From Cyclobacterium sp. SYSU L10401 (lineage in GTDB: Bacteria > Bacteroidota > Bacteroidia > Cytophagales > Cyclobacteriaceae): a stretch of DNA of 64,000 nt. The position numbers and the translations under genes are program-made. Of this stretch, positions 4,311 to 64,000 are shown piece after piece (position 1 is the first letter of the stretch; each line of letters begins with the position of its first letter). Under the pieces are notes generated by a model that was given only the letters and a program-made list of their open reading frames with translations, was not told where the DNA came from and searched no databases. Location of the stretch: assembly GCF_010993705.1 (NCBI RefSeq), contig NZ_WOFO01000011.1, positions 113,257 to 177,256 of the forward strand, in the 5' to 3' direction.

Positions 4311-4571
4311 TAAAGCCTTGTTTACACTTAGCCCATTATTTGGAAAAAGTTTGGAGTAATAACAATTGTTCCGTCTCAATTAACGAACAAAGATGCAGAT
4401 ATGATTTAAAAAAATAATGATATTTTATTAAAATATTAAAGCAAAGACTTTGGCATACTGCTAATTATTAAAAATCAAAGGTAGGCAGGTTAATGGGGAG
4501 GGAAAGTAAATGGGGTGATTAAGCATTGAACCATTTAAATCAATTTTTTATTTGTAGGGATTTAAAATTGA

Positions 4572-6690: not shown

Positions 6691-6730
6691 TTACCTGTAA
6701 CAAGTATTTCGGCTTTAAACGGCCATAAAA

Positions 6731-6768
6731 AAAAGGGTGAAACGCTTCTGTGAGCGGCACCCTTTTTT
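6731..6768 (+). terminator. Rho-independent terminator after ffh
   Basis: AAAAGGGTG (6731-6739) pairs with CACCCTTTT (6758-6766), with extra pairing inside (CGCT/AGCG), and a T-run follows. It lies 40 nt past the ffh stop. Confidence 0.85.
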
Positions 6769-6892
6769 CTTGAATGGATTGTCCATTTAAATGAATACCT
6801 TTTACCGGAAGTAAAACTCATGGATACAGTAATTCCCGGCTGGACAATAAAATGAGGGCCTTGGTGTGCGCCCTACATTTGACTACCACGGT

Positions 6893-7432
6893 TTATTCGC
6901 TGGCTTCCGTATTTTCGACGGTTATATCAAAATCCAAATCCTCGGGATCGATTTCCAACAATTCTGAAGCATCAATTTTAAGAATTACTTCCCGATTGAC
7001 CAATTCAGCCACGATATCCATTTGCTGCTCGAATGGGGCTTCATTTTCGTGCATTTCATTGAATTGATCCATTAGCTCCTCATCACTGTAATCAGCATAG
7101 CGTTCTTTCCGCTCGTTTTTAATTCTTTCTTTTTCGTTTGCTAATAATTGCTCCTTTCTTTCCTCCAGATTGGCCTTATAGGTTTCCATCATTTCGTTCA
7201 ACTCTTCGCTTTCATAAAAAGGAGTACTGGACACGGTGACCGGTTCGGAAGTACCATCAATGTGGACGACCGTCATGGTATCGGCATTTTTTAAAATATA
7301 CTCGTCACCAGTTTCTGTGTCCAACACACTTTCCTCTTCGAATTGATACCGGTCTTTATTATCACCCGAACAGGCAGCAGTAAATGAGATGGCGAATGCG
7401 GTTATAATCAAATATCTTAAATACATGTTCAT
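6893..7432 (-). CDS. Hypothetical lipoprotein, charged
   Basis: The 179-residue product begins MNMYLRYLIITAFAISFTAAC, a signal peptide ending in a lipobox (FTAAC) with Cys21 as the lipidated residue. The mature part is very acidic and charged, with a predicted helical, coiled-coil-prone middle (ELNEMMETYKANLEERKEQL and onward). The C-terminus is acidic (LLEIDPEDLDFDITVE). No known enzymatic motif is visible. It stands alone between ffh and pdhB and would be anchored in the inner or outer membrane facing the periplasm. Confidence 0.75.
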   Translation of the reverse strand: MNMYLRYLIITAFAISFTAACSGDNKDRYQFEEESVLDTETGDEYILKNADTMTVVHIDGTSEPVTVSSTPFYESEELNEMMETYKANLEERKEQLLANEKERIKNERKERYADYSDEELMDQFNEMHENEAPFEQQMDIVAELVNREVILKIDASELLEIDPEDLDFDITVENTEASE

Positions 7433-7660: not shown

Positions 7661-8641
7661 TTACTTTTGGTAAGTGACCGATTTAACGGCCTCTATGGTA
7701 CGCTTTGCATTTGGTAGCGTAGCTTCAATGTAAGTTGGCGAATAGCTCAAGGGAATATCCATAGAATTTACCCGCATCACGGGGGCGTCCAGGTAGTCAA
7801 AAGCATGTCTCTGAATATTATAGGCCAGGTCGGTGGAAATAGAAGCTACCGGGTTGGCTTCCTCCACAATCACACACCTGTTGGTCTTTTTAACAGATTC
7901 AAGCACTGTCTTATAATCTATTGGCTTTACCGTTCGCAGGTCAATTACTTCTGCTTTGATTCCATCCTTAGCAAGTTCATCTGCCGCTTCAAATGCTACT
8001 TTCATCATCTTTCCGAAAGAGACAAGGGTGACATCCTCCCCTTTTCTTTTGATTTCTGCAATTCCAAGTGGTAAGAGGTATTCACCTTCCGGAACTTCAC
8101 CTTTATCTGCATACATCAACTCAGATTCCATAAAAATGACTGGATTGTTATCTCTGATGGAAGCCTTGAGCAATCCTTTGGCATCATATGGATTGGATGG
8201 AACGACCACTTTAAGTCCTGGAGTGTTGGCAAACCAGTTTTCAAAATTTGAGGAGTGAGTAGCCCCTAACTGACCGGCATTACCGGTTGGACCTCTGAAT
8301 ACAATGGGTACACTGTATTGTCCTCCCGACATGGCCAGCATTTTCGCAGAAGAATTGACCAGTTGATCCATAGCCACCAGTGAGAAATTAAAAGTCATAA
8401 ACTCTATAATGGGCCTGAGGCCATTCATGGCCGCCCCTACACCCAATCCGGAAAAGCCTAGCTCTGAAATGGGTGTGTCAATAACACGTTCGGGGCCAAA
8501 CTCATCCAACATTCCCTGGCTGGCTTTGTAGGCTCCATTGTATTCGGCTACTTCTTCACCCATGAGGAAAACGTTTTTATCGCGCCTCATTTCTTCGGAC
8601 ATGGCATCTCTGATCGCGTCTCTGAACTGTATTTCTTTCAT
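7661..8641 (-). CDS. pdhB: Pyruvate dehydrogenase E1 component, beta subunit
   Basis: This is the beta subunit of the thiamine-diphosphate-dependent E1 enzyme, which decarboxylates pyruvate and acetylates the E2 lipoyl group. At 326 residues it is full length for the family. Diagnostic segments are the N-terminal FRDAIRDAMSEEM, MGEEVAEYNGAYKAS, DTPISELGFSGLGVGAA (cofactor-region Glu), FRGPTGNAGQLGATHS, and the transketolase C-terminal segment VTLVSFGKM...VIDLRTVKPID. No pdhA or E2 gene is adjacent, so the complex is encoded at separate loci, which is common in this phylum. A branched-chain keto-acid E1 beta is the main alternative. Confidence 0.92.
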   Translation of the reverse strand: MKEIQFRDAIRDAMSEEMRRDKNVFLMGEEVAEYNGAYKASQGMLDEFGPERVIDTPISELGFSGLGVGAAMNGLRPIIEFMTFNFSLVAMDQLVNSSAKMLAMSGGQYSVPIVFRGPTGNAGQLGATHSSNFENWFANTPGLKVVVPSNPYDAKGLLKASIRDNNPVIFMESELMYADKGEVPEGEYLLPLGIAEIKRKGEDVTLVSFGKMMKVAFEAADELAKDGIKAEVIDLRTVKPIDYKTVLESVKKTNRCVIVEEANPVASISTDLAYNIQRHAFDYLDAPVMRVNSMDIPLSYSPTYIEATLPNAKRTIEAVKSVTYQK

Positions 8642-8842
8642 TTATATACAAAATTTTCTATGCTCGTAAAAATAGAAAGGAATCTATCAATTACCAAGTT
8701 TGGATGTCCAATAAGGATGTTTAATTGTAATTATGTAGCTTTATTTTTCAATGTATTCATGCGGTCTGCATGTCGTCGACACCTGAATCACTTCCTGGTT
8801 TGGAGCCGAATTTTAATTTCGTTAATTAAAAAAAAATATTGA

Positions 8843-9343
8843 ATGGTAAAAATTGCATTGATCAGTGATACACATGGCATGTTGCCTGAAAATGCCCTTC
8901 CTGCCCTTGAGCAGGCAGATGAGATATGGCATGCCGGAGATGTGGGTGTCCCGGAAGTACTCTTAAGTCTTCCGGAAAAGCCCATTCACAGGGTGGTGTA
9001 TGGCAATATTGATGATGCATCATTAAGGCAGAGATTTGAAGAAGAATTGTTTTTTACTTCAGGTGGTGTAAAGGTGTTGATGTTGCACATTGGAGGCAAG
9101 CCTCCCAGGTATGCCACTGGAGTAAAAGCTAAAATAAAAAGGCTTAGGCCAGACATTTTTATTTGTGGACATTCCCATATATGTAAAGTAGTCTACGATA
9201 AAGACCTTGAATGCCTTTACTTAAATCCCGGGGCCTTAGGGAATCAGGGATTTCACCAGGTCAAAACCATGATGACTTTTGAACTGGATGGGAAAATCAA
9301 AAATTTAAAAGTTTTGGAATTGGGAAAAAGAGGGAAAATATAA
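8843..9343 (+). CDS. Metallophosphoesterase, YfcE/MJ0936-type
   Basis: A 166-residue calcineurin-like phosphoesterase. The metal-binding motifs are in order: SDTHG (8-12), WHAGDVG (29-35), GNIDD (54-58) and GHSHI near residue 113. This compact architecture matches the YfcE/MJ0936 group of broad-specificity phosphodiesterases. The real substrate cannot be read from the sequence. The gene ends facing a small convergent gene, with a shared hairpin in between. Confidence 0.92.
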   Translation: MVKIALISDTHGMLPENALPALEQADEIWHAGDVGVPEVLLSLPEKPIHRVVYGNIDDASLRQRFEEELFFTSGGVKVLMLHIGGKPPRYATGVKAKIKRLRPDIFICGHSHICKVVYDKDLECLYLNPGALGNQGFHQVKTMMTFELDGKIKNLKVLELGKRGKI

Positions 9344-9347
9344 AAAT

Positions 9348-9365
9348 ACCCAGCCTGGGCTGGGT
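9348..9365. terminator. Shared terminator hairpin between convergent genes
   Basis: ACCCAGC (9348-9354) pairs with GCTGGGT (9359-9365) around CTGG. On the minus strand it is followed by TATTTTTA, making a good terminator for the 49-residue gene. On the + strand only TTAAAATTTT follows, which is weaker. Confidence 0.7.
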
Positions 9366-9375
9366 TAAAATTTTC

Positions 9376-9525
9376 TTATTTTTTGCTGGAAAACTCTTTT
9401 TTGATTTCCTCTACATCCACGTTTTTGATCACAGGCTTAGCACTCAGTTGCTTGATCTTCAATACCCTGGCGTTTTGAGCCTGTCTTTTCCTTCTTAGTT
9501 TTCTCTTTAATGTAGTAACAGCCAT
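9376..9525 (-). CDS. Small basic conserved protein (49 aa)
   Basis: A short frame that begins ATG 9525 and reads MAVTTLKRKLRRKRQAQNAR, followed by about 29 more residues ending in EFSSKK. The N-terminal half is strongly basic and resembles a nucleic-acid or ribosome-binding tail. The C-terminal half is KPVIKNVDVEEIKKEF. I recall similar tiny proteins in other Bacteroidota but cannot name a family. Its own terminator and a clean ATG support it as a real gene. Confidence 0.7.
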   Translation of the reverse strand: MAVTTLKRKLRRKRQAQNARVLKIKQLSAKPVIKNVDVEEIKKEFSSKK

Positions 9526-9668
9526 TTTATTTTTATTTTAATTCGTTCCTGGAAATGAAGGGCAAAGGTAAATAAAATATCCTTAAAAAACCTGAATTTA
9601 ATGCAAAAGAAGTTGAAGCATTGCACCAATAAAGGCCTTTCCGACAGCCATATCCTTATTTAATTTTT

Positions 9669-9676
9669 TAACTTTG
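9669..9676 (+). promoter_or_regulatory. -7 promoter box of hisS
   Basis: TAACTTTG is an exact TAnnTTTG match, 16 nt before the hisS ATG, implying a very short leader. No clear -33 element. Confidence 0.5.
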
Positions 9677-9692
9677 GACAAATTTTCAGAGC

Positions 9693-11078
9693 ATGAGCAA
9701 ACAAAAACCAAGTATACCAAAAGGGATGAGGGACTTTGATCCTACTGAGATGGCCCGAAGGAATTATATTTTTGACACCATCAAGGAAGTTTTTAAGCTG
9801 TTTGGATACCAGCAATTGGAAACCCCGGCCATGGAAAACCTGTCTACCCTTACCGGAAAATACGGCGATGAAGGTGATCAACTTCTTTTTAAGGTATTAA
9901 ATAGCGGAGAGTTTCTGAAAAAAGTTTCAATGGATGATTTCAGGAATGGGGAGCCAGAGGTGCTTTCAAAAATTGCTGAAAAAGGACTCAGGTATGATTT
10001 GACAGTCCCTTTTGCCCGGTATGTGGTCATGCACCAGAATGAAATCACCTTTCCTTTCAAGCGTTTTCAGATGCAGCCGGTGTGGCGAGCAGACCGACCT
10101 CAAAGAGGAAGGTACAGGGAGTTTTATCAATGTGATGCAGACGTGGTCGGAACGGATAGTTTGATCTGTGAAGCAGAAATTTTAATGATGATCAATCAGG
10201 CTTTTGCCAAATTTGGCATAATGGATTATGCCATAAAAATCAATAACCGGAAAATCCTCACAGGAATGGCTGAGGTGATTGGTGAAAAGGGGAAGGAGGG
10301 AGATTTGTGTGTGGCCATTGATAAACTGGACAAGATAGGTTGGGAGAAAGTTAGTGAGGAGCTTTTCCAAAAAGGGTTTTCAGAGGCATCAGTAGCAGCG
10401 TTAAAACCGGTGTTGGAAATGCAAGAAAAAGATAATAAAGGGTGGCTTACTTTTTTTAAAGAATACCTGGCTCAAAGCACTACCGGCATGAAAGGCCTGG
10501 AAGAATTGGAAGAAGTACTGACATTGTTTTCCATGATGGGAGGAGATGAAGCGCATGTGGTTTTCGATCCGGTTTTGGCCCGTGGACTTTCTTATTATAC
10601 TGGTGCTATTTTTGAAGTAAAGGTGGGAGGGGTGCAGATAGGATCCGTGAGTGGTGGAGGCCGTTATGATAATCTTACCGGAGTTTTTGGTCTTCCCGGG
10701 ATATCCGGGGTAGGCTTTTCCTTCGGAGTTGACAGGCTTTATGATGTATTGGATGCCCTGGGTATTTTTCCGGTCCAACAAAAGGAAAGTACACAGATTA
10801 TGCTTGCCTGCTTTGGTGAAAAGGAAAGAAATAAAGGGTTGAATATATTGGCTGCTTTTCGGGAAGCAGGTCTGGCTGCGGAAATTTATCCTGAATTGGT
10901 GAAAATAAAAAAGCAATTCAATTATGCGGACAAAAAGAATATACCATTTGTAGGCATCCTGGGTGCGGAGGAATTGGCCAATGACAGCATTAGTCTAAAA
11001 AACATGAAAAGCGGTGAGCAAGAAACCCTTTCTCTGGAAAGTGTCATTTCAAAAGTAAAAAATTCAACGACAAAATAA
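9693..11078 (+). CDS. hisS: Histidyl-tRNA synthetase
   Basis: This class IIa aminoacyl-tRNA synthetase charges tRNA-His. At 461 residues it has the typical N-terminus (IPKGMRDFDP), motif 2 (FQMQPVWRADRPQRGRYREF, with Arg contacting ATP), the histidine-specific ARGLSYYTGAIFE and GGGRYD segments, motif 3 (GVGFSFGVDRLYD) and a C-terminal anticodon-binding domain (from ~365). It is monocistronic and convergent with the next gene, 2 nt apart. Confidence 0.97.
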   Translation: MSKQKPSIPKGMRDFDPTEMARRNYIFDTIKEVFKLFGYQQLETPAMENLSTLTGKYGDEGDQLLFKVLNSGEFLKKVSMDDFRNGEPEVLSKIAEKGLRYDLTVPFARYVVMHQNEITFPFKRFQMQPVWRADRPQRGRYREFYQCDADVVGTDSLICEAEILMMINQAFAKFGIMDYAIKINNRKILTGMAEVIGEKGKEGDLCVAIDKLDKIGWEKVSEELFQKGFSEASVAALKPVLEMQEKDNKGWLTFFKEYLAQSTTGMKGLEELEEVLTLFSMMGGDEAHVVFDPVLARGLSYYTGAIFEVKVGGVQIGSVSGGGRYDNLTGVFGLPGISGVGFSFGVDRLYDVLDALGIFPVQQKESTQIMLACFGEKERNKGLNILAAFREAGLAAEIYPELVKIKKQFNYADKKNIPFVGILGAEELANDSISLKNMKSGEQETLSLESVISKVKNSTTK

Positions 11079-11080
11079 AT

Positions 11081-11374
11081 TCAGTCTATTTTAAATATGG
11101 AGGCAATGGGAATGGTAATTCCTCTTTTTAGGGAAATAAACTTCTCTCCCACGGCCCAGATCGTAGTGTAGACTTTAAATACTTGTTTGTCAGCTGTTTC
11201 AAAATATATCCAAACCTTGCCACGGGAGGTATTTCCCAGGATTTGTGACCTTTGTAAATCAAAGTAACGCTGTTTTATTAAAACAGGATCGGTTAATACT
11301 TCGGAGGATGAAAAACGAAGTCCCAGGACCTGCTCCTTTTCTATGATCAAGATCTCTTTCTCAAGTGTTTCCAT
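11081..11374 (-). CDS. Hypothetical small protein
   Basis: 97 residues, soluble, no signal peptide. The pattern of alternating hydrophobic strands (KVWIYFETADKQVFKVYTTIWAVGEKFISLKRGITIPI) suggests an all-beta fold in the C-terminal 60 residues. No family recognised. It starts at ATG 11374 and ends 2 nt from the hisS stop. Confidence 0.6.
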   Translation of the reverse strand: METLEKEILIIEKEQVLGLRFSSSEVLTDPVLIKQRYFDLQRSQILGNTSRGKVWIYFETADKQVFKVYTTIWAVGEKFISLKRGITIPIASIFKID

Positions 11375-11548
11375 AGGTGTATGATGAATGGGTTAAACAG
11401 CTAAGGTTCATGGGTATTCTTACGTATAATTCAAAAATAAGGTTTGAATATTCTATAAAAGCACTATTATTGGAATAAAATATTGATTATACCTATTTTT
11501 TTACAATTAAATTTTATTCAAATATAATACGGCCCTTGCAAAAAAAAT

Positions 11549-11556
11549 TATATTTG
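11549..11556 (+). promoter_or_regulatory. -7 promoter box of the ybaB-type gene
   Basis: TATATTTG matches TAnnTTTG exactly, 23 nt before ATG 11580. The -33 region lacks a good TTTG at proper spacing. Confidence 0.5.
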
Positions 11557-11579
11557 TAAAACAAACAAAAAAAACACGT

Positions 11580-11912
11580 ATGTTAGATATCATGAGCATG
11601 ATGAACAAGGTCAAGGAAGCCCAGGCCAAGATCAAAGAGACCCAGGCAGAACTTGTTCATCTGAGAGCTGAAGGAGAAGTAGGAGCCGGAATGGTGAAAG
11701 TGATTGTCAATGGGGATAGAAAGGTCCTGGATATAGAAATAGATCCTTCTCTGGTCAATGAAAAGGACAAAGGCATGATGAAGGACTTGATTGTGGGTGC
11801 CACCAATAAAGCCCTGGAAAATATTGACGTCAAAATTAAAGAAAAGATGAGTGCTGCCACCGCTGGAATGATGCCGAATATTCCTGGCATGGATTTCGGA
11901 AATATGGTATAA
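11580..11912 (+). CDS. YbaB/EbfC-family nucleoid-associated protein
   Basis: A 110-residue member of the YbaB/EbfC family, small dimeric DNA-binding proteins of the nucleoid. It has the N-terminal helix (MMNKVKEAQAKIKETQAEL), the GAGMVKVIVNGDRKVLDIEID core and a methionine/glycine-rich tail (MMPNIPGMDFGNMV). The stop codon shares its last A with the ATG of the downstream glycosyltransferase, so the two are translationally coupled. Confidence 0.93.
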   Translation: MLDIMSMMNKVKEAQAKIKETQAELVHLRAEGEVGAGMVKVIVNGDRKVLDIEIDPSLVNEKDKGMMKDLIVGATNKALENIDVKIKEKMSAATAGMMPNIPGMDFGNMV

Positions 11913-12922
11913 TGAAAAAAGCGGCCATTGTGATTTTGAATTTCAATGGGAAAGGTATGTTGAAGAAATACCTTTCTCAGGTTTACCAGCATTCTGTTTA
12001 TGAGATAATTATTGTAGACAATGGGAGTTGCGATGGGTCCATCGATTATTTATTGAGTCATTTTCCGGAAATCAAGTTGGTACTTCTGAAGGAGAATCAT
12101 GGATACAGCAAAGGCTATAACCTGGGTCTGGAAAGCCTGAAGGGAGATTATGAGTATTATATTTTGTTGAATTCAGATGTTGAGGTGGCTGCGTATTGGG
12201 ATGAAACATTGATTGAATACATGAGCCAACGACCCCATGTTGCGGTTTGCCAACCTAAGATCCTTTCCTTAAGCAAAAAGGGGTATTTCGATTATGCTGG
12301 CGCAGCCGGCGGATTTCTGGACAGTATGGGATACCCTTTCTGCAGGGGCAGGATGCTTCATACCCTGGAAAAGGATCAGGGTCAATACAACGATTCCACT
12401 GCAGTTGATTGGGCATCCGGGGCATGTTTTTGTGTGAAAGCGGGCCTTTTTCATGATTATGAGGGGTTTAATCCTTACTTTTTTTCGCATATGGAAGAAA
12501 TCGACCTGTGTTGGAGGATGAGAAAGGATGGCTTTCAGGTTCATTGTTGCGGTGAGGCTAAAGTTTACCATTTGGGGGGAGGTACCTTGTCTGAGGTAAA
12601 TCCTTTCAAAACCTACCTCAATTTCAGAAACAGCCTGCACATGCTCTATAACAACCTAACGGTGTCGGGGTTTTTGAAGGTGATCGGGTTAAGATTTATT
12701 TTGGATGGTGGAGCCTTGATACACCTCTTGTTTACCAAGGGCTGGCCTCATAGTAAGGCTGTAGCAAAAGCATATTTGGATTTTGTAAAGAAAAAAGACG
12801 AGGTAAAAGGTAGTAAAATTGCCAGGACCAATAAATTGGAATCAATAAAGCCAAGGCCTGTCTTTTCTATTATATTCCAATATTATTTGCTTGGAAAAAG
12901 AAAATTCTCACAATTGAATTAA
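11912..12922 (+). CDS. Family 2 glycosyltransferase (rhamnosyltransferase-like)
   Basis: 336 residues with a GT-A fold: AAIVILNFNGKGML at the N-terminus, VDNGSCDGSIDYL (nucleotide-binding), LLNSDVEV (the DxD-type metal site, here NSDVE) and FFSHMEEIDLCWRMRKDG (the ED-containing acceptor region common in GT2 enzymes). It probably transfers a sugar to a surface glycan or lipid. No other polysaccharide genes are adjacent, so the substrate is unknown. It is coupled to the ybaB-type gene by a 1-nt overlap and overlaps the convergent PspC gene by 4 nt. Confidence 0.9.
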   Translation: MKKAAIVILNFNGKGMLKKYLSQVYQHSVYEIIIVDNGSCDGSIDYLLSHFPEIKLVLLKENHGYSKGYNLGLESLKGDYEYYILLNSDVEVAAYWDETLIEYMSQRPHVAVCQPKILSLSKKGYFDYAGAAGGFLDSMGYPFCRGRMLHTLEKDQGQYNDSTAVDWASGACFCVKAGLFHDYEGFNPYFFSHMEEIDLCWRMRKDGFQVHCCGEAKVYHLGGGTLSEVNPFKTYLNFRNSLHMLYNNLTVSGFLKVIGLRFILDGGALIHLLFTKGWPHSKAVAKAYLDFVKKKDEVKGSKIARTNKLESIKPRPVFSIIFQYYLLGKRKFSQLN

Positions 12923-55869: not shown

Positions 55870-57033
55870 ATGCGTGTAGTAGAAGTAAGTACCCAAGCAC
55901 AGAGCAAGGAGTTTATTGAAATGGCCGTCCGGCTGTACCGGGAGGAGAAGAATTGGATCCGGCCCCTGGATAAGGACATAGAGGACCTGTTTCATCCCGA
56001 AACGAATAAATTGTATAAAAGTGGCGGGAAGGCCATCCGCTGGCTATTGCTGGATGATCAGGGAAATACCATTGGCCGCAATGCGGCCTTTGTCAACCCC
56101 AAATGGAAAGAAAAGCAGCCCACCGGAGGCATGGGTTTTTTTGAATGTATTCACGATAAAGCGGCTGCCTTTTTGCTTTTTGATGTGGCCCGGGATTGGT
56201 TGCAGGCGCAGGGGATGGAGGCCATGGATGGCCCGGTCAATTTTGGCGAGCGGGACAAATGGTGGGGCCTGCTGGTGGAAGGATTTTCTCCGCCGAACTA
56301 CAATATGTACTGGCATTTTCCTTATTACCGCTCCTTTTTCGAGGAATACGGCTTTCAGATTTATTTCCGGCAATTTACCTACATGCGCAAGGTGCGGGGC
56401 GTGGTGATGGATCCCAAAATTGAAGCCCGGGCCAAAATCATCCGCGAAGACAAGAATATCACCTTCCGCTACCTGAAGGGGAAGGAACTCTGGGACAAAT
56501 TTCCGGAGTATTTCATGAAGGTCTATAACAAGGCCTGGGCAGCCCATATGGGAAAGACCATTTCCGAAAGGGAAGCCCGGCTGATCCTGAAAAACATGAA
56601 GCCCATCGTGGATCCGTACCTGGTTTATTTTGGCTTTTACAAGGAGGAACCCATTTCCTTTTTTGTGAGCATTCCGGAAATCAATCAGGTCTTCAAGTAC
56701 GTCAACGGAAAGCTGGACCTGATGGGAAAACTGAAATTTCTCTGGCACAAAGCGATGAATCCACCCGACAAGATGCTGGGATTGGTATTTGGGGTGGTGC
56801 CTGAGTTTCAGGGAAAGGGCGTGGAAAGCGCCATGGTGACCGAATACCGGGATAACATTGCCGAAAAGAAATTGTCCTACGAGACCATTGAGATGAACTG
56901 GATCGGAGATTTCAATCCGAAAATGATGCGGGTCTGTGAGCAACTAAACGCCAGCATCTACAAAACCCACCATACATACCGGTACCTCTTTGACCGGGAA
57001 AAACCCTTTGAACGCCATAAGGTCTTGGGCTGA
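55870..57033 (+). CDS. GNAT-like acetyltransferase-fold protein
   Basis: 387 residues, cytoplasmic. It begins MRVVEVSTQAQSKEFIEMAV. The N-terminal part has IGRNAAFVNPKW and MGFFECIHDKAAAFLLFDVARDWLQ. The C-terminal part has a GNAT-like CoA region (LGLVFGVVPEFQGKGVESAMV, with Q-x-K-G-V in place of Q-G-x-G). It looks like two tandem N-acyltransferase folds, as in large uncharacterised GNAT-like proteins. Substrate unknown. Its stop overlaps the beta-lactamase start by 1 nt, so they are coupled. Confidence 0.78.
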   Translation: MRVVEVSTQAQSKEFIEMAVRLYREEKNWIRPLDKDIEDLFHPETNKLYKSGGKAIRWLLLDDQGNTIGRNAAFVNPKWKEKQPTGGMGFFECIHDKAAAFLLFDVARDWLQAQGMEAMDGPVNFGERDKWWGLLVEGFSPPNYNMYWHFPYYRSFFEEYGFQIYFRQFTYMRKVRGVVMDPKIEARAKIIREDKNITFRYLKGKELWDKFPEYFMKVYNKAWAAHMGKTISEREARLILKNMKPIVDPYLVYFGFYKEEPISFFVSIPEINQVFKYVNGKLDLMGKLKFLWHKAMNPPDKMLGLVFGVVPEFQGKGVESAMVTEYRDNIAEKKLSYETIEMNWIGDFNPKMMRVCEQLNASIYKTHHTYRYLFDREKPFERHKVLG

Positions 57034-57857
57034 TGAACAAAAGTACCAGGTTTTACATTCTCCGGATCCTTTTGATGGGATTGATTTTCGGGTATTTATC
57101 CGAATCCTCCTATGGTCAGCAGGTACGGTCTGCGGAGCTGCAGGAAATCCTGGATAAGGCAGGCCTCAGCGGGAGCATCCTGGTGTATAGCGCTGAAGCT
57201 GACAGGTATTATTCCAATGATTTTGACCATGCCGAAAAAGGTCAGTTGCCCGCTTCTACTTATAAAATTCCCCATTCCCTGATTGCCCTGGAACTGGGTA
57301 TCGCTGAAGATGAGGCAACGGAATTTCCCTGGAATGGGGAAGCCCGGGCCATGTCCCAATGGGAGCGGGATTTGACCTTTAAGCAGGCCTTTCACCTGTC
57401 CTGCGTGCCTTGTTACCAGGAAATTGCCCGGAAAATAGGGCTGGACCGGATGGAGGACTACCTGAGTCGGCTTGATTTCGGTCAGATGGATGTGCGCGCC
57501 GACAACCTGGATCAATTTTGGCTGCGGGGTGATTCCCGGATCAGTCCGATGGAACAAATCCGCTTTTTAAAACGCCTTTATAGGCGGGATTTGCCCTTGT
57601 CTGCGGAAACCATGTCGATTTTTCGGGAGATGATGGTCATGGAAGATACCGAAGACTACCGGCTCAGCGGCAAGGCCGGCTGGTCAGTGGATCAGGGGGT
57701 AGACAATGGCTGGTTTGTGGGCTATCTGGAGCAGGGGAGAGCGGTGTATTTTTTTGCCAGCAACCTGGCCCCCGGACCGGGAGTCAGTGATGCCGATTTT
57801 CTTCAGGCCAGAAAAGGGCTGACGCTGGAGGCACTGCAGGTGCTGGGGTTTTTGTAG
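57033..57857 (+). CDS. Class D (OXA-type) beta-lactamase-like protein
   Basis: 274 residues with a signal (ILRILLMGLIFGYLSESSYG). Class D motifs in order: PASTYK (Ser75-Lys78, catalytic S-x-x-K), LSCVPCYQEIARKIG (Ser123-x-Val125), LDFGQMDV at the Y-G-N position (F-G-Q instead), QFWLRGDSRISPMEQIRFL (Trp163) and LSGKAGWS at the K-T-G position (Lys214-Ala-Gly). The catalytic Ser, Lys and Trp are kept. Two binding motifs differ, so a weak or different hydrolytic activity, or a penicillin-recognising role, is possible. It is coupled to the GNAT-like gene. Confidence 0.85.
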   Translation: MNKSTRFYILRILLMGLIFGYLSESSYGQQVRSAELQEILDKAGLSGSILVYSAEADRYYSNDFDHAEKGQLPASTYKIPHSLIALELGIAEDEATEFPWNGEARAMSQWERDLTFKQAFHLSCVPCYQEIARKIGLDRMEDYLSRLDFGQMDVRADNLDQFWLRGDSRISPMEQIRFLKRLYRRDLPLSAETMSIFREMMVMEDTEDYRLSGKAGWSVDQGVDNGWFVGYLEQGRAVYFFASNLAPGPGVSDADFLQARKGLTLEALQVLGFL

Positions 57858-57871
57858 GGGGAATCGGGCAG

Positions 57872-58285
57872 CTACGGCCGATTGGTCTCCGGATCAACGG
57901 TGGTAATCTGGTACCTGACCAACTGTTGGTTCATGTATTCCTGCCAGGTCACCACGTTGATTTTTTCCTTTTCGGCATATGCGTAGCCGTATTCGTAGCA
58001 AAAATAATAATAGTTGCCCTTTTGGGTGATGTATTGGTGGGTAAAGAAATTGAAGTCAAATCCCTGCCGGGTAAGAATTTCCCTACGTACAGCCGTAAGT
58101 CCTATTGGGTTGAGGTTTTGCAAGATCCGCCGATTTTTTCGCAGGATCTTATTGATATCCAAAATGGTTTTTTCGCTTCTCCGCTTGTTTCGGTTATGTC
58201 GTTGAAAGCGACATTGGTCCGAGCAGAAAATTTTGTCTTCTCTACCATGGATAACATCTCCACATTCGGGGCATTTTCGATCCAT
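57872..58285 (-). CDS. Zinc-ribbon protein of unknown function
   Basis: 137 residues from ATG 58285. The longer reading would run through the 48-bp palindrome and is implausible. The N-terminus MDRKCPECGDVIHGREDKIFCSDQCRFQRHNR is a C-x2-C...C-x3-C zinc ribbon followed by a basic stretch. The rest is helical with aromatic residues (YYYFCYEYGYAYAEKEKINVV). It is probably a nucleic-acid-binding or regulatory protein. It is divergent from the tyrosine recombinase, and the palindrome ends 2 nt before its start codon. Confidence 0.75.
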   Translation of the reverse strand: MDRKCPECGDVIHGREDKIFCSDQCRFQRHNRNKRRSEKTILDINKILRKNRRILQNLNPIGLTAVRREILTRQGFDFNFFTHQYITQKGNYYYFCYEYGYAYAEKEKINVVTWQEYMNQQLVRYQITTVDPETNRP

Positions 58286-58287
58286 AT

Positions 58288-58335
58288 CCGTATTATTACA
58301 CGTGTATAAACGTTTATACACGTGTAATAATACGG
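58288..58335. promoter_or_regulatory. Perfect 48-bp palindrome between the zinc-ribbon gene and the recombinase
   Basis: The left half begins CCGTATTATTACACGTGTAT, and all 24 bases are mirrored in the right half, ending ATAATACGG. Inside are two TACACGTGTA palindromes flanking a central AAACGTTT. It sits 2 nt before the zinc-ribbon start codon and 45 nt before the recombinase start, so it could be an operator for divergent control, a recombination site, or a leader hairpin. Confidence 0.9.
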
Positions 58336-58380
58336 AAATTATTTTTAGGATTCTTTTTTTTACCACAAAAAAAGAGCAAG

Positions 58381-59817
58381 ATGGAAAAGAAAGCCAACGT
58401 TTATTTGAATTTCTGCGAGGAAAGCAACAAGGACCGGGTGTATTTTCGGCTTAAGGCAGACCATCCGCTAAGAAGCAAGGTTACCGGTCATGCCTGGTTG
58501 GAATTCAAGGCGGATCAGGTACGCTGGGAAATGGACTATTCGGATCACAGTATTCAACTGCTCAGACAGTTATGTTTTCCCGATATCCTGGTAAATACGT
58601 ATTACCTGAACCGTGAACCAGTGACCTATTCATCGGGCTGCCAAGTATTGAAACCCGTCTCGGATAAGCAGGCCGGTGGAGATGGAATGGATTTACCTAC
58701 GTTATGGGCGATGCCCATACTCCACGAGGGGCATACGCTGATCAAGTATTCATTTTCCTACAGCAAGCCCATCTACCGACTCCTTAAAGCCCAATCCTTC
58801 TTAAAATGGAGTGCACAATACCGGAGTTTTGTGGGCAATAACGACTCCGGCGATTTCAAGGTCCTCATTCGGGAACTTAAGGGGATAGCCCTGTTGAATT
58901 TCCGAAAAGGGATCGAGATCAGGGACATGGAATTGCTCCAACAGTATCAGGCACAGTGGCACAAGGGAGACCATCGAATAAGTTGTCGGGTGGATTTTCT
59001 GGAGATGATGCAGGCCCGCAATTACAGTGAGCGAACCCTGGTGACGTATAAGAAAATGATTGAGCGCTTTATCAATGATCCTCGATGGCTGGATCGGGAT
59101 ATGGGTGAGGTAACCGTGTCTGACATCAACCAGTACCACGAGGAATGGTCCTCCCGGGGAGGGTCCGCCGCCTCTATCCATCAGTCGGTGAATGCGCTCC
59201 GGTTGTATTTTACCCATTTGGGTAGGGGTAAATTGCTACTTTCCGATATCAGTCGTCCAAAGAAGGAAAAGGTACTTCCGAAAGTATTGAGCAAGGAAGA
59301 GGTAAAAGCCTTGCTAAAAGCCAGTGAAGTCAACGAAAAGCATTACCTGATCCTGATGTTGCTCTATGGAGGCGGCTTACGGGTTGGGGAATTGATCCAA
59401 CTGAGAAAGGAAGACCTGGAACTGGATCGGAAGCTATTGCGGATCCGGCAGGGGAAAGGAAAAAAGGACCGCTATACGTTACTGCCGCTACAGGTGTTGG
59501 ACAGGCTAAGTCGGTATCTGTCAGTCTCAGGATCGGGAGAATACGTTTTTGGTGGACAATTTGGAGGTAGGTACAGTAGCAGCAGTATTCAGCAGTTTAC
59601 CCGTAAATATGGCAGGGAGGCGGGGATAAAAAAGCGCATTCATCCCCACATGCTGCGGCATAGTTTTGCTACCCATTTATTGGAAGGGGGTACGGATCTG
59701 CGGTATATTCAGCAGCTTTTGGGTCACAACTCCAGCAAGACCACGGAGATATACACCTATGTAAGCAGCAAACACCTGGGTCAGATCGTCTCTCCTGGAG
59801 ATTTGCTGGATAGCTAA
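58381..59817 (+). CDS. Tyrosine recombinase (XerC/D-like) with a ~200-residue N-terminal extension
   Basis: 478 residues. The catalytic domain (~300-478) has Arg334 (GGGLRVGEL), Lys359 (GKGKKDRY), His423-x-x-Arg426 (HPHMLRHSFATHL), His449 (LLGHNSSKTT) and the nucleophile Tyr458 (EIYTYVS). A SAM-like core-binding domain spans ~203-285. The first ~200 residues match nothing I recognise. The segment between Lys359 and His423 is short, so the extra patch of IntI integron integrases seems absent. It lies immediately upstream of, and points toward, a cassette array, so it is the likely cassette integrase; this is inferred. Confidence 0.9.
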   Translation: MEKKANVYLNFCEESNKDRVYFRLKADHPLRSKVTGHAWLEFKADQVRWEMDYSDHSIQLLRQLCFPDILVNTYYLNREPVTYSSGCQVLKPVSDKQAGGDGMDLPTLWAMPILHEGHTLIKYSFSYSKPIYRLLKAQSFLKWSAQYRSFVGNNDSGDFKVLIRELKGIALLNFRKGIEIRDMELLQQYQAQWHKGDHRISCRVDFLEMMQARNYSERTLVTYKKMIERFINDPRWLDRDMGEVTVSDINQYHEEWSSRGGSAASIHQSVNALRLYFTHLGRGKLLLSDISRPKKEKVLPKVLSKEEVKALLKASEVNEKHYLILMLLYGGGLRVGELIQLRKEDLELDRKLLRIRQGKGKKDRYTLLPLQVLDRLSRYLSVSGSGEYVFGGQFGGRYSSSSIQQFTRKYGREAGIKKRIHPHMLRHSFATHLLEGGTDLRYIQQLLGHNSSKTTEIYTYVSSKHLGQIVSPGDLLDS

Positions 59818-59901
59818 GCGGAATAGAAATGAAAAAGCTAGTTGAATTTTATTGGAATTTTTCTATCTTTAGGAGGCTGTGTTCGTACGGCCAAAAGGGA
59901 A

Positions 59902-59937
59902 CTAACCGCAATGGCTGCGGTTAGCCAATAGTTATGC
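59902..59937 (+). other. Candidate primary attachment (attI-like) site and first cassette junction
   Basis: A perfect hairpin CTAACCGCA-ATGGC-TGCGGTTAG (59902-59924) lies just before the core GTTATGC (59931-59937), where cassette 1 begins. The interval 59818-59931 after the recombinase is non-coding, where an attI would sit in integrons whose integrase points toward the array. Confidence 0.55.
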
Positions 59938-59948
59938 CTCATTTTAAC

Positions 59949-60572
59949 ATGAAACGACAAGTAATTATAATATTGACTATTTTTCTTGCTGCTTGCGGAC
60001 AAAGACCACAATCGGACAATAAGGTATCTAAGAAAAATGACTCAATCAATGACAACATACAGGACTTTCAGACCTATTTTGTTAATGACATTGTGTCGAA
60101 TGTGGAACATTTAAATCTATTACAAACTCAGCTAATCTCAAACCCTAAAGTAGTTTTCATTGAAAAAGAGTTTACGTTGAATGTGAACAAAACTGACTTA
60201 CTAAATGTGCTAAAAATTGAGGCACGCGAATCAGACGAAGACTTTGAAAAAATTTACAATATTGTAATAAATTATATAAAATCTACGGACAGCTTGACAT
60301 TTGAACACATTTGGACAAAAGGAGAAAATTTTGATGATATTAGTTGGTTTGAGACTGACAGACTTGGTCCAAGAAATCTAACAAAAAAAATTTTGAAAGA
60401 AACTATCTGTAGACTTATTGAAAATGGTGGTTTTGAAATTATTCTGAACAATAAAAAAGAAAGAAATTACTTCTTTGAACGAGTAGACAGTGATTATGGT
60501 GGTAATGTAAAAGGGGTTTTCACCGCTGACAAAAAATTAATTTGGATATGTCCACCATTCATAATAGACTAG
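59949..60572 (+). CDS. Cassette 1: hypothetical lipoprotein
   Basis: 207 residues from ATG 59949 (MKRQVIIILTIFLAACGQ): signal peptide and lipobox FLAAC. An ATG inside the core site (59934) is in frame but gives a less typical signal. The mature part is Asn/Lys/Asp-rich and unrecognised (NILNV.K-type helices, then FFERVDSDYGGNVKGVF). Composition is much more A+T-rich than the housekeeping genes to the left, as expected for captured cassettes. No own terminator; the attC-like repeat starts 7 nt after the stop. Confidence 0.72.
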   Translation: MKRQVIIILTIFLAACGQRPQSDNKVSKKNDSINDNIQDFQTYFVNDIVSNVEHLNLLQTQLISNPKVVFIEKEFTLNVNKTDLLNVLKIEARESDEDFEKIYNIVINYIKSTDSLTFEHIWTKGENFDDISWFETDRLGPRNLTKKILKETICRLIENGGFEIILNNKKERNYFFERVDSDYGGNVKGVFTADKKLIWICPPFIID

Positions 60573-60579
60573 GAAAAAC

Positions 60580-60714
60580 GAGGCATAACAGCACCTACCC
60601 AAAAGTGGCGGTTCAGTGGTTAAATCAAGCTTTGTGCATCTATCAAAGTTTCTGCTTGGTTGACAGTGAATCGCTCCGAAATCGCCACCTTCGGGAAGCT
60701 GCAAAACGTTGGCT
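60580..60714 (+). repeat. attC-like recombination site of cassette 1
   Basis: It starts GAGGCATAAC, the exact reverse complement of the cassette's own first bases GTTATGCCTC (59931-59940). Long arms pair imperfectly (60589-60613 with 60680-60701; AGTGGCGGTT against AATCGCCACC). An inner pair follows (AATCAAGC/GCTTGGTT). It ends with core GTTGGCT (60708-60714), where cassette 2 begins. Total ~135 bp. Confidence 0.8.
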
Positions 60715-60739
60715 GTAATACAAAAAGACCACGAAACAT

Positions 60740-61486
60740 ATGAAATATAGCATTTTAATAATTGGATTGATAATTTCATTTAATCTGTTTGGACAAGAAC
60801 TAACCAGAAAGGAAAAGAAATATATACCGAAAGATTTTAATGAGGCATTAACACAATTGGATAAAGTGATTCCTGATTCAACTAAAAACCGGATTAAATC
60901 AATGACTGAGGATGATTTTGTTGCCCAGACACATTTTTCAACTGGCATGTGGATTAGGAATTACTGGCTTTATAACCGATATCTGTTTGGATTGATTGTA
61001 ATAAAATCGGATTTAAGAAAAAATTTAACGGCAAAAGGACTTTTCCATAACGATGACATGTCAGGAGTTATTCTTCGTTCCTATCACCGTAAATTAAACG
61101 GGATTGAGATTAACCTTGACCAGCAGATTAAAGATGTTCATCAATGGTACGTGAATATGAATGACTCAAAATGGAGAGCCGAGCAAGATTCAATAAAATG
61201 GGCAGAGTACATGACACAATTTGAAATTGGCGATACATTGACAGACCATGTTTACTATGACAGGAACTGGTTGGGAGAGCCGAGAAAAAATGCTGTTTTA
61301 CTTGCAAAGGTGATTGAAAAATCCGATAAACAACTAAAAATTGAGTTGATTTCATTCGGAGACGGAATAAATGACAAACCAATGATTTATGAACAGATAA
61401 AGTGCGATTCGATTGATTGCTGGATAAATCCTTATTGGTGGAAAAAGATTGATAATGAAGGAAGTACTACAGCCAACACGCAATAA
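60740..61486 (+). CDS. Cassette 2: DUF6794-domain secreted protein
   Basis: 248 residues with a signal (YSILIIGLIISFNLFGQ). The N-terminal half reads KYIPKDFNEALTQLDKVIPDSTK...HFSTGMWIRNYWLYNRY...GLFHNDDMSGVILRSYHRKL, the DUF6794 pattern. The C-terminal half (~150-248) is extra and unrecognised. The final codons (TTANTQ) run into the start of the attC-like repeat, and the stop lies inside it. A+T-rich. Such genes are typically found as single cassettes; function unknown. Confidence 0.75.
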   Translation: MKYSILIIGLIISFNLFGQELTRKEKKYIPKDFNEALTQLDKVIPDSTKNRIKSMTEDDFVAQTHFSTGMWIRNYWLYNRYLFGLIVIKSDLRKNLTAKGLFHNDDMSGVILRSYHRKLNGIEINLDQQIKDVHQWYVNMNDSKWRAEQDSIKWAEYMTQFEIGDTLTDHVYYDRNWLGEPRKNAVLLAKVIEKSDKQLKIELISFGDGINDKPMIYEQIKCDSIDCWINPYWWKKIDNEGSTTANTQ

Positions 61487-61601
61487 AAAACATAGGGCGA
61501 AAGTGCTAAATTTGAACAACATAACATTTAATAAACTGCTTGATAACTTGATAGGTAGGAGCTTCGAAATGCCCTACGTTTCTTATTGCCATCCGTTGTG
61601 C
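61468..61601 (+). repeat. attC-like recombination site of cassette 2
   Basis: It starts TACAGCCAAC, the reverse complement of the cassette's first bases GTTGGCTGTA (60708-60717). The left arm CAATAAAAAACATAGGGC (61481-61498) pairs with GCCCTACGTTTCTTATTG (61571-61588) with two mismatches. It ends with core GTTGTGC (61595-61601). About 134 bp, almost the same length as the first site. Confidence 0.8.
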
Positions 61602-61624
61602 CTCATGCAGAAAAATGAAAATCG

Positions 61625-63886
61625 ATGAATAAAATTGAAGCGATCCAAAACATTAAAAAGGTTGGAAAATTTGTTGATTGTCAAGCAGCAGGTTCTCAAT
61701 TTCAAGACAATACAATAATTTACGGACGTAATACCTTGGGCAAAAGTACCCTTACTGCTATTTTCAGGTCGATTCAAACAGGTGACAAAAAAATAATTGA
61801 AGGGAAAAAAACATTCGGAGTAGCAGGAAGTCCTGATATAAAAATCCGATTCACCGATGGAGCCACTAGAACAATTCTTGACTTTAATAGCAATCAATGG
61901 ACAAAAGGAAATCCTAATATTCAAATATTCGACACTCAATTCATTACTGAGAATGTATTTCAAGGGGAAGAAATAACCTTCGACAACCAAAAGAGCTTAA
62001 ATCAAATAATTATTGGTGAAAAAGGAATTGATTTAAACTCTAAAATACAAGAGCTTCAAACGGCATTGAATGAATTAACCGAAAAGAAACGACAGCTGAC
62101 CAATAACTTTAACAAGCTTTTACCTAGTTCAGATTATGGAAATATCACAATTGAAAAATTTTGTGCTTTACCAGAAACAACCGACCTAGATGTTCAAATT
62201 AAAGCCAAAAAAGAAGAATTACAGCGCCTGCGAAACAAGGAAATAATTACAACAACTATTCGCAAACATTTATCATTTTTCAGTTCCCTATCAGGCTTAG
62301 ATTTCAATAGGATTTTAAATAGTAGAATAAACTTCAATCCTGAAGAAATTAACCGACACATTTCAGCCCATTGGAAAGACAAGGACGCAAGCAAGGACTT
62401 TTTAAGACAAGGTCTTGACTTAACAAAAGAAGAAAAGGAGACTTGTGTGTTTTGTGGTCAAAACCTAAATGCAAAAGAGCTTAGATTATTAGAATCTTAT
62501 GAGCTGTTTTTTAAAGGTGAATACCAAACTCTTCAAAGACAAGTCCAACAAATAAAAAAGAAATTGGATTCAGCTAATTTTGAAAACACCACGAACCTTT
62601 TGAAGGCTGACTTTGAGAAATACTCTCTTGAAACTGAATTAACCCAAGAGTTTTTTGAGAACATAATCCTTGCCTTTAATTCTTTAATAAAGGATTTTGA
62701 AAGCAAATTTCAAGACTTGTATTTTACACCTTCAAATGATTATGATTCAATTTTTGAAGAACCATTAAATGCTCTGATTAAAGAAATTGAGAGAGTTCTT
62801 GAGAAATATTTCCCTTCGGATGGTAAAACGATAAGTCAATCACAAGTCATGTCTGAAATAAAGGACTTAGAACTTCAAAAACAGAGAATAAGCAAGGCAT
62901 TCAAAGACATATGCCAAGAATTTGAGCAAATAAATAATTCATTTAACAGCAAGAGAACTGAAAGGGAAAGTAAACGAAAGGAATTAGAAGATTATTCATT
63001 AGAAGTTTTTGATCTTCATAAAACGTCAATCAACTACTATTTAAAGCGAATGGGAGCAAATTTTATGATTGATGACTTACAACCGATAAAGAAACTCAAA
63101 GGTTCTGACGAAAGACTATTCACTATTAAGTTCTACGACAAGCACCTTGTCAGTCTTGATTCTGAAAATAATGATATTCCTAACTTCAAAAATTCATTAA
63201 GCGAAAGTGATAAGCGTGTTTTGGCCTTTGCCTTTTTCCTCTCCCTTTTAAAACACGATGATAAATTAGATAAAAAGATTTTAGTGTTTGACGACCCTTT
63301 TTCTTCTTTCGATGAAGAAAGGAAAAGGGATACTATTCAATTACTTGCTGATGTTAAATATCAAAAGGAAGGGATTGAAAAGAAGCCTTTGCAAAAAATT
63401 ATATTAACGCATGAAAAAACATTCTATAGGGATGTATATCTTAAGTCATTCAGTGATTCCTCTACTCAAACTATAAAAATAGAATTTGATAAAGTAATCG
63501 ATGGCATAAACACTAGTAAAATTGCATATTGCAATATTGAAGAAGAATTTCCAGATGATAAAATAATTGCCAAAATCAAACGAGTAAAGGAAATTCACGA
63601 CAACCAGTCATATAGTGAAAAGTACGATGGTGATTGTAGAGTGATTCTAGAAAATATTTTTAAACGGAAATATTACTTCCTACTTGAAGATGCTATAAAA
63701 TCAAGAAAGAGTGTAAGAACATTTACAACTTCATTAGAAGATAAATATCCGACTGAAGATTATAACAAGTTATTACGATTATGTGATGACTTGAACATAG
63801 AACTACATGACAATGATTCAGACCCTTCAAATGGAGACCACGGTTCAGTTTTGAGAGACTTTTTCGAATGTATTGAAATAATATAA
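61625..63886 (+). CDS. Cassette 3: RloC/PrrC-like AAA_13 ATPase with zinc hook
   Basis: 753 residues. Walker A IIYGRNTLGKSTL (GRNTLGKST, 34-42), coiled coils, a C-V-F-C zinc-hook-type pair (274-277), more coiled coil, ABC signature LSESDKR (525-531), Walker B ILVFDDPFSSFD (552-563) and switch histidine LTHEKTF (His596). The C-terminal part contains Arg672-x3-Glu676 (CRVILENIF) and late histidines (728, 739). This is suggestive of the Arg/Glu/His anticodon-nuclease set of PrrC and RloC, known tRNA-cleaving anti-phage enzymes. The ATPase family is well supported; nuclease activity is inference. No restriction-modification genes are seen beside it. Confidence 0.82.
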   Translation: MNKIEAIQNIKKVGKFVDCQAAGSQFQDNTIIYGRNTLGKSTLTAIFRSIQTGDKKIIEGKKTFGVAGSPDIKIRFTDGATRTILDFNSNQWTKGNPNIQIFDTQFITENVFQGEEITFDNQKSLNQIIIGEKGIDLNSKIQELQTALNELTEKKRQLTNNFNKLLPSSDYGNITIEKFCALPETTDLDVQIKAKKEELQRLRNKEIITTTIRKHLSFFSSLSGLDFNRILNSRINFNPEEINRHISAHWKDKDASKDFLRQGLDLTKEEKETCVFCGQNLNAKELRLLESYELFFKGEYQTLQRQVQQIKKKLDSANFENTTNLLKADFEKYSLETELTQEFFENIILAFNSLIKDFESKFQDLYFTPSNDYDSIFEEPLNALIKEIERVLEKYFPSDGKTISQSQVMSEIKDLELQKQRISKAFKDICQEFEQINNSFNSKRTERESKRKELEDYSLEVFDLHKTSINYYLKRMGANFMIDDLQPIKKLKGSDERLFTIKFYDKHLVSLDSENNDIPNFKNSLSESDKRVLAFAFFLSLLKHDDKLDKKILVFDDPFSSFDEERKRDTIQLLADVKYQKEGIEKKPLQKIILTHEKTFYRDVYLKSFSDSSTQTIKIEFDKVIDGINTSKIAYCNIEEEFPDDKIIAKIKRVKEIHDNQSYSEKYDGDCRVILENIFKRKYYFLLEDAIKSRKSVRTFTTSLEDKYPTEDYNKLLRLCDDLNIELHDNDSDPSNGDHGSVLRDFFECIEII

Positions 63887-63890
63887 AAAA

Positions 63891-63903
63891 GCACGAAGGC
63901 ACA
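63891..63903 (+). repeat. Interrupted attC-like site of cassette 3 (left core only)
   Basis: GCACGAAGGCACA (continuing A at 63904) resembles the reverse complement of the cassette's own start GTTGTGCCTCATGC, with one mismatch and one inserted base. The rest of the site is not present, because a group II intron end begins here. Confidence 0.6.
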
Positions 63904-64000
63904 ATCGAGTAGCCCGACCTGAGCCAAATGGCTCAGGTTGAGGCTCTCACACCACCAAGCGTACGGGTCTCGTACTTGGCGGTTCACTGGATTGTAGGTT
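63904..64000 (-). mobile_element. 3' end of a group II intron (domains V and VI) on the minus strand, continuing past the window
   Basis: On the minus strand, domain V is ACCGCCAAG-TACG-loop-CGTA-CG-CTTGGTGGT: a 9-bp lower stem, the 2-nt CG bulge on the 3' side and an upper stem. A CGC triad lies near its start (about 63983 down to 63951). Domain VI follows with stem CCTGAGCC/GGCTCAGG (63918-63937), and the intron ends CTACTCGAT with an adenosine 7 nt from the end (63910) as branch point. The CGC triad and the attC-type target suggest a class C intron. The body and any reverse transcriptase would lie to the right of the window. Confidence 0.75.

What the first reader, a model, noticed from the sequence alone, without database searches (positions are those of the whole stretch)
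59818..64000. Integron-like cassette array of three single-gene cassettes behind a tyrosine recombinase
Sequence shows three + strand genes separated by ~135-bp imperfect inverted repeats, with core sites GTTATGC (59931), GTTGGCT (60708) and GTTGTGC (61595). Each cassette's opening bases are reverse-complemented at the start of its own 3' repeat: GTTATGCCTC/GAGGCATAAC, GTTGGCTGTA/TACAGCCAAC, and GTTGTGCC/GGCACAA in damaged form. This reciprocal matching is what integron cassettes show when the circular form rebuilds one attC. The cores only loosely fit GTTRRRY and the arms are long. Integron arrays are well known in Proteobacteria and spirochaetes, while a Bacteroidota version with a different recombinase would be unusual.
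Basis: partly seen in the sequence, partly recalled or inferred. Interest (0 to 1): 0.92.

Follow-up and report, generated by a model that had tools for sequence, protein, structure and literature searches.

The report
Bacteroidota integron lacking the IntI domain
This is an integron-like gene-collecting array in a Bacteroidota bacterium: single-gene cassettes with matching hairpin sites sit behind a recombinase that lacks the domain typical of known integron enzymes, and that recombinase is predicted to swap the cassettes in and out, which would make it a widespread and little-noticed route of gene exchange in this phylum.

Summary
Observation confirmed. Behind a tyrosine recombinase (58381-59817) lie an attI-like site ending in GTT (59931) and three single-gene cassettes. 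Two complete attC-like hairpin sites separate them; the third is cut in R'' by a group II intron 3' end where the contig stops. Reciprocal end matching holds in 35 of 35 consecutive cassette pairs scored in eight arrays; shuffled partners reach at most 8 (19 within loci). The attI-like sequence is kept in sister species while the first cassette differs. A covariance model of 25 sites hits 209 of 295 genomes of the class; canonical IntI passes its cut-off in 1 of 295. DNA kinship ends at the attC edges. The recombinase is XerA-like: the IntI-specific insertion is absent in 40 of 40 array-linked rows (65-70 residues against 107 in three IntIs), and N-terminal domains weakly like HARP are typical. 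The bottom strand folds more stably in 32 of 35 sites. Verdict: a real integron-type system, common in Bacteroidota, run by a non-IntI recombinase; recombination itself is inferred. Eight searches of open-licence papers listed no description of it.

The parts
58381..59817 (+). Tyrosine recombinase, 478 aa: two N-terminal repeats (about 5-72 and 104-176), then a XerA-like core (205-470); no IntI-specific insertion
   Evidence: Pfam PF00589, NCBIfam NF040815 237.1 bits over cut-off 220, TIGR02249 190.3 under 265; 2A3V alignment 19 against 62 residues; models
58287..58336 (.). 50-bp palindrome between the recombinase and a divergent small gene; possible shared regulatory site (untested)
   Evidence: sequence; similar in G067 and G018
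59815..59933 (+). attI-like region with hairpin 59902-59924 and crossover triplet GTT 59931-59933 (crossover inferred)
   Evidence: five copies aligned, different first cassettes after GTT
59932..60708 (+). Cassette 1; lipoprotein-like gene, ORF 59934-60572 (start perhaps 59949)
   Evidence: Pfam only a sub-threshold DUF6034 match
60577..60718 (+). attC1 with R boxes; AAC 60587 to GTT 60710
   Evidence: in 122 of 295 class genomes at E 1e-3, own included
60709..61595 (+). Cassette 2; DUF6794 gene 60740-61486, whose stop lies inside attC2
61465..61605 (+). attC2 with R boxes; AAC 61475 to GTT 61597
61596..63904 (+). Cassette 3 up to its cut R'' (GGCACAA 63898-63904); AAA_13 ATPase 61625-63886
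   Evidence: PF13166; PADLOC candidate family PDC-S06, 199 bits
63905..64000 (-). 3' end of a group II intron inserted in R'' of attC3 (intron on the minus strand, cut by the contig end)
   Evidence: same junction at C21, C15, C17 and in G018; Rfam RF00029 in L025, L027, L093 but not in the window copy

Best explanation
This is an integron-type platform: a tyrosine recombinase gene is followed by an attI-like site and three single-gene cassettes, each opened by GTT and closed by its own attC-like hairpin site (the third cut by an intron), and the recombinase is predicted to insert and excise cassettes by recombining the folded bottom strand of attC with attI at GTT. Shown by sequence: reciprocal cassette ends, a conserved attI with different first cassettes in sister species, chains of sites on the 3' side of homologous recombinases, attC sites shared between families apart from their genes, and beside a 10-bp R box a fixed position that is A opposite C on the top strand and so G-T on the bottom. 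Inferred: the crossover point, the use of the bottom strand, and that this recombinase is the enzyme. The enzyme is not IntI: it is XerA-like and lacks the IntI-specific domain. I propose that its N-terminal HARP-like domains help it to grip the folded site, a task in which IntI uses the missing domain.
For: 35 of 35 cassette pairs reciprocal. attI kept in five copies with different first cassettes. Of 22 recombinase loci read (window, own C17 and 20 stretches picked from the 61 matches), 17 have a candidate attC 3' of the gene, three of them by one detector with little support (L090, L095, L103); of the other five, three contigs stop within 388 bases, one is L093 with an intron-cut cassette, one is L101. 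In 80 named loci 64 model hits fall in 22 of 40 Bacteroidota loci and 0 of 40 others; 61 of 64 lie 3' of the recombinase in the same orientation. Model hits in 209 of 295 class genomes, IntI over cut-off in 1 of 295. Matches to two window cassettes in 87 of 375 genomes are confined to attC or attI edges outside the own window. Bottom strand more stable in 32 of 35 reconstituted sites, 91 of 200 in random stretches. One gene family (55% identity over 439 aa) is a cassette in two arrays with different attC types.
Against: No recombination was observed; no empty attI and no excised circle was found. Model R1 was built partly from the loci that it was then run on. Of 40 named Bacteroidota loci 18 have no model hit, several with little 3' sequence. 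The sequence-free detector found sites in 19 of 40 Bacteroidota loci and in 1 other, and cannot tell strands apart. IntI's insertion is said to be essential for integron function (PMC8138268, passage), so its absence is an argument against the same chemistry. HARP likeness is weak: the window's own domain matches no HARP model, Foldseek had 0 matches at E 0.001.
Confidence: 0.88

Rival explanations
1. An ordinary IntI integron in an unusual host: the arrays belong to the known family and are moved by a canonical IntI, the XerA-like recombinase being a divergent IntI.
For: NCBIfam's XerA model is itself named recombinase/integron integrase and the window protein passes it; general architecture attI, GTT, attC is the same.
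Against: TIGR02249 is missed by the window protein and eight relatives (190 to 244 bits, cut-off 265), breaking where the IntI domain lies; 65-70 residues against 107 in 40 of 40 array-linked rows; canonical IntI over cut-off in 1 of 295 class genomes, which has no model hit (the 14 control genomes gave no positive).
Confidence: 0.05
2. A relic: such a system built the array, but here it no longer moves cassettes.
For: The own genome holds two platforms with ruined recombinases (C21, C9:622k) and introns in attC sites at four contig ends.
Against: The window recombinase is open over 478 codons, 81% identical to its sister, with the invariant R, K, H, R, H, Y positions kept; attC1 and attC2 have intact R boxes.
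Confidence: 0.15
3. The repeats are a mobile element, terminator or intron target that spreads by itself, and the recombinase beside them is chance.
For: attC1-like DNA recurs up to 97% identical in other families; some sites are single; group II introns home to them.
Against: A self-spreading repeat would not carry 7 variable bases that match the far end of the neighbouring gene unit in 35 of 35 pairs; 61 of 64 hits lie 3' of the recombinase in one orientation.
Confidence: 0.03

Closest known systems
Integrons with IntI (class 1 to 3, chromosomal integrons)
   Same: attI next to a tyrosine recombinase; single-gene cassettes in one orientation; GTT crossover core; attC rebuilt from both cassette ends; bottom-strand hairpin with an asymmetric base.
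   Different: Recombinase XerA-like without the IntI-specific insertion and with N-terminal extra domains; R box 10 bp (GTT plus 7) instead of the 7-bp GTTRRRY core, whose RRRY is not kept; recombinase and cassettes on one strand.
XerA / archaeal Xer recombinases
   Different: 38 of 40 array-linked proteins have 60 aa or more before the core, 3 of 37 non-Bacteroidota relatives do; linked to cassette arrays.
Group IIC-attC introns
   Same: Insertion in R'' of the attC bottom strand, against the cassettes; consensus TTGT/T in print (PMC7923331, passages), here GT/T, and CTGT/T in a Chryseobacterium plasmid.
   Different: In Bacteroidota attC sites; intron class not settled here (RF00029, RF02001).
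HARP domain of SMARCAL1
   Same: Profile of 51 N-terminal domains finds 4O66 at E 0.002; 7 of 51 members match Pfam HARP, best 2.1e-4.
   Different: Weak and indirect; the window's own domain has no such match; DUF5710 matches more members (11 of 51).

Membership tests
Integron (as a kind of system) | Cassettes whose own 5' and 3' ends together rebuild the recombination site | tested here: met
   35 of 35 pairs
Integron (as a kind of system) | attI beside the recombinase, with different first cassettes in relatives | tested here: met
   five copies of the site; no empty site seen
Integron (as a kind of system) | Recombination of attC with attI by the linked enzyme | not testable with these tools
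   bench assay needed
IntI integron integrase | IntI-specific domain around patch III | tested here: not met
   19 against 62 residues in 2A3V; 65-70 against 107
IntI integron integrase | TIGR02249 over its cut-off of 265 bits | tested here: not met
   190.3 bits; eight relatives 193.9 to 244.4; three IntIs 421.6 to 472.5
Classical attC | Core GTTRRRY / RYYYAAC | tested here: not met
   GTTATGC, GTTGGCT, GTTGTGC: GTT kept, RRRY not
Classical attC | Bottom strand folds into the more stable hairpin | tested here: met
   32 of 35 reconstituted sites, control 91 of 200
XerA-type recombinase | NF040815 over its cut-off of 220 bits | tested here: met
   window 237.1; of eight relatives five pass, L094, L098 and L025 fall short
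Group IIC-attC intron | Insertion in the R'' bottom strand at TTGT/T | tested here: inconclusive
   GT/T side seen at four own contig ends and G018; both sides only in the Chryseobacterium plasmid, CTGT/T; intron class not determined
HARP domain | Pfam PF07443 match | tested here: inconclusive
   7 of 51 domains, not the window's; 4O66 by profile at E 0.002

The most novel reading that the evidence does not exclude
Bacteroidota run their own phylum-wide integron system with a second kind of integrase: XerA-type recombinases that took up cassette recombination without the IntI domain and instead use N-terminal HARP-like, structure-specific DNA-binding domains to recognise the folded bottom strand, whose strand choice is written in G-T wobbles.
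Probability: 0.5. Interest if true: 0.93.

Novelty: new variant of a known kind. Interest (0 to 1): 0.84.

Why it matters
Integrons are reported as rare in Bacteroidetes proper (one complete case in IntegronFinder 2.0, PMC9024848, passage) and are recognised by IntI. Here attC-like sites are in 209 of 295 genomes of the class (own included), near-identical sites sit in different families (up to 97%), and two plasmids carry them, one typed as conjugative. If active, this is a large and overlooked channel of gene exchange. It also makes an old question testable: how a recombinase without the IntI domain could handle a folded single strand, and so how integrases arose from Xer. Surveys built on IntI and the classical attC core would be expected to miss it.
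Full report
What is there. The window is bases 113257-177256 of contig C2 of a 5.9-Mb genome in 22 contigs, and the contig ends at window base 64000. At its end lie a 478-aa tyrosine recombinase (58381-59817), a hairpin followed by CCAATAGTT, and three genes on the same strand. Cassette 1 carries a lipoprotein-like gene, cassette 2 a DUF6794 gene, cassette 3 an AAA_13 ATPase whose best PADLOC match is the candidate defence family PDC-S06.

End matching. In an integron each cassette's first bases, joined to its own 3' site in the circle, rebuild attC. I scored this in eight loci with chains of sites (window, L088, L089, L094, L096, L097, L098, L106). Of 35 consecutive pairs up to 2.5 kb apart (one longer gap, in L088, left out), 35 match in the first four bases after GTT and at 6 or 7 of 7 (28 at 7 of 7). 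Partner shuffles reach at most 8 pairs at 6 or more of 7, and at most 19 when shuffled within loci. A first run had 32 of 33, the miss being a site that I had overlooked. Position 8 of the cassette start is A in 35 of 35, and the reverse complement of the end reads G in 34 and C in one: in the 34, A opposite C on the top strand and G-T on the bottom. I chose the sites by a crude hairpin scan and removed three false ones by eye.

attI. The stretch between recombinase and first cassette is recognisable in G067 (same genus, recombinase 81% identical), in G018 (same family, recombinase broken) and in two relic platforms of the own genome, and ends in CCAATAGTT, CCGGTAGTT or CCAGGAGTT; after GTT each copy has another gene. 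No empty site was found.

Arrays. I read 22 recombinase loci: the window, the own C17 copy and 20 stretches picked from the 61 matches in 48 genomes. In 17 of 22 a candidate attC lies 3' of the gene; L103 rests on a hairpin alone, L095 on one hairpin and L090 on model hits at E 0.001 and weaker. Of the other five, L091, L092 and L105 end 44, 85 and 388 bases after the gene, L101 ends after 1.7 kb, and L093 has a cassette cut by an intron. L096 has 14 sites, L098 (a single-contig genome) 9, of which 8 are consecutive, L106 5 by the scan and a sixth by the model. Of 31 cassettes in five arrays 24 hold a complete ORF of 50 aa or more, 24 of 24 on the recombinase strand.

Model. A covariance model of 25 sites, bottom strand, 124 positions and 16 base pairs, found in the 64-kb window only the two expected sites, and in the own genome 17 sites at E 1e-3 or better, of which at least 8 lie within 4 kb of a contig end (lengths of C12 and C13 not seen). 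Some own sites are single.

Spread. attC1 as DNA is in 122 of 295 genomes of the class at E 1e-3, up to 97% identical apart from the own copy. The model hits 209 of 295 at E 1e-6, own genome included; only 12 candidates per genome were scored, so copy numbers are lower bounds. The IntI model TIGR02249 passes its cut-off in 1 of 295, G286, which has no model hit; 14 control genomes gave no positive, so sensitivity rests on G286. A query with the window's attI and cassettes 1 and 2 matched 87 of 375 genomes at E 1e-15; outside the own window the listed rows lie at query 771-973 or 1673-1798 (the attC sites and their edges) and, in the own C9, at 22-134 (attI). In 80 loci with titles (best 80 of at least 591), 64 hits at E 0.01 fall in 22 of 40 Bacteroidota loci, among them Algoriphagus ornithinivorans, Flavobacterium enshiense, Winogradskyella ursingii, Alkalitalea saponilacus and a Rufibacter, and in 0 of 40 others; 61 of 64 lie 3' of the recombinase in the same orientation, the exceptions being one each in L165, L171 and L182. 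A sequence-free detector found reciprocal sites 3' of the gene in 19 of 40 Bacteroidota loci and 1 of 40 others (L195), and 5' of it in 3; it also rings on the reverse strand, so it does not test orientation. Of 72,556 plasmids two carry attC1-like sites: Chryseobacterium sp. SNU WT5 and Emticicia oligotrophica pEMTOL01, the latter typed conjugative.

Recombinase. The window protein passes NF040815 (XerA type) and misses TIGR02249 (190.3 of 265 bits); eight array-linked relatives also miss it (193.9 to 244.4), the fit breaking near profile positions 180-238, and three of the eight miss NF040815 as well. Against IntI4 (2A3V) 19 residues stand where IntI4 has 62. Between the KKDR and RHSF motifs 40 of 40 array-linked rows have 65-70 residues, three IntIs confirmed by TIGR02249 have 107. 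In a tree of 110 proteins the three IntIs stand apart (100/100) but the deeper order is unresolved. The array label was given to 40 rows, two of them the same own protein, some on weak hits (L090, L095, L103, L140, L154, L190), one on a 5' hit (L182). In print, by passages seen: the IntI insertion is essential for integron function though not fully conserved in that subgroup (PMC8138268); archaeal IntIs have it (PMC9668308); a genome survey selected for it (PMC2426708).

Folding. Rebuilding each site from its own cassette ends, the bottom strand is more stable than the top in 32 of 35, mean difference -2.3 kcal/mol; in 200 random stretches of these loci 91.

Introns. Four own contig ends (C2, C21, C15, C17) and G018 show a cassette whose R'' is followed by TCGAGTAG and intron-like sequence on the other strand; Rfam confirms RF00029 in L025, L027 and L093, not in the window or C21 copies. 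In the Chryseobacterium plasmid an intron with an ltrA gene parts an R'' from the rest of an attC. This mirrors IIC-attC introns (PMC7923331, abstract and passages) and explains the 'damaged' third repeat.

What is known. IntegronFinder 2.0 reports one complete integron in Bacteroidetes proper (Salinibacter ruber) and earlier only In0 (PMC9024848, passage); a review lists Bacteroidota among phyla with integrons (PMC8618304, passage). Eight searches on integrons listed no paper that by title or abstract start describes this system; I saw passages of six papers, else listings. Classical core GTTRRRY, the function of HARP and the bottom-strand mechanism of IntI are partly recalled.

Verdict. A real integron-type system, filed as a new variant: it works like an integron by its anatomy, but its recombinase is not IntI. 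Activity is untested.

Noticed in passing
window 58287-58336: A perfect 50-bp palindrome between the recombinase and a divergent small gene with a treble-clef-like motif (57872-58366, sub-threshold DUF2116); similar in G067 and G018, half kept in the relic L233.
   Followed up: partly
L233 (own C9:616000-628000), 6170-7330: A relic platform: palindrome, a recombinase reduced to its ends, attI, one endonuclease/exonuclease-like cassette with a worn attC.
   Followed up: partly
L021 (own C21 end), 8590-11950: A second relic: recombinase remnant, attI-like site, Fic-domain cassette (PADLOC PDC-S24, 630.5 bits), then the same intron as in the window.
   Followed up: partly
L025 (own C17 end), 8047-10750: A second intact recombinase of another branch with one cassette and a group II intron at the contig end.
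   Followed up: partly
L219 (Chryseobacterium plasmid NZ_CP041688.1): Two group II introns (RF02001 at 4295-4466 and 9356-9527, minus strand) among attC-like sites on a plasmid.
   Followed up: partly
L127 (G286): The only genome of 295 in the class with a canonical IntI over cut-off (421.9 bits); it has no match to the attC model.
   Followed up: no
L022 8587 and L023 5834 (own C9, C22): Further stretches with the intron end directly after cassette-like ends outside the main arrays.
   Followed up: no
L220 (Emticicia plasmid NC_018742.1) 8053-9557: KwaA and KwaB defence genes annotated about 2 kb from an attC1-like site, on the other strand.
   Followed up: no
window 57033-57857: Penicillin-binding transpeptidase-domain gene upstream of the platform, not part of it.
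   Followed up: no
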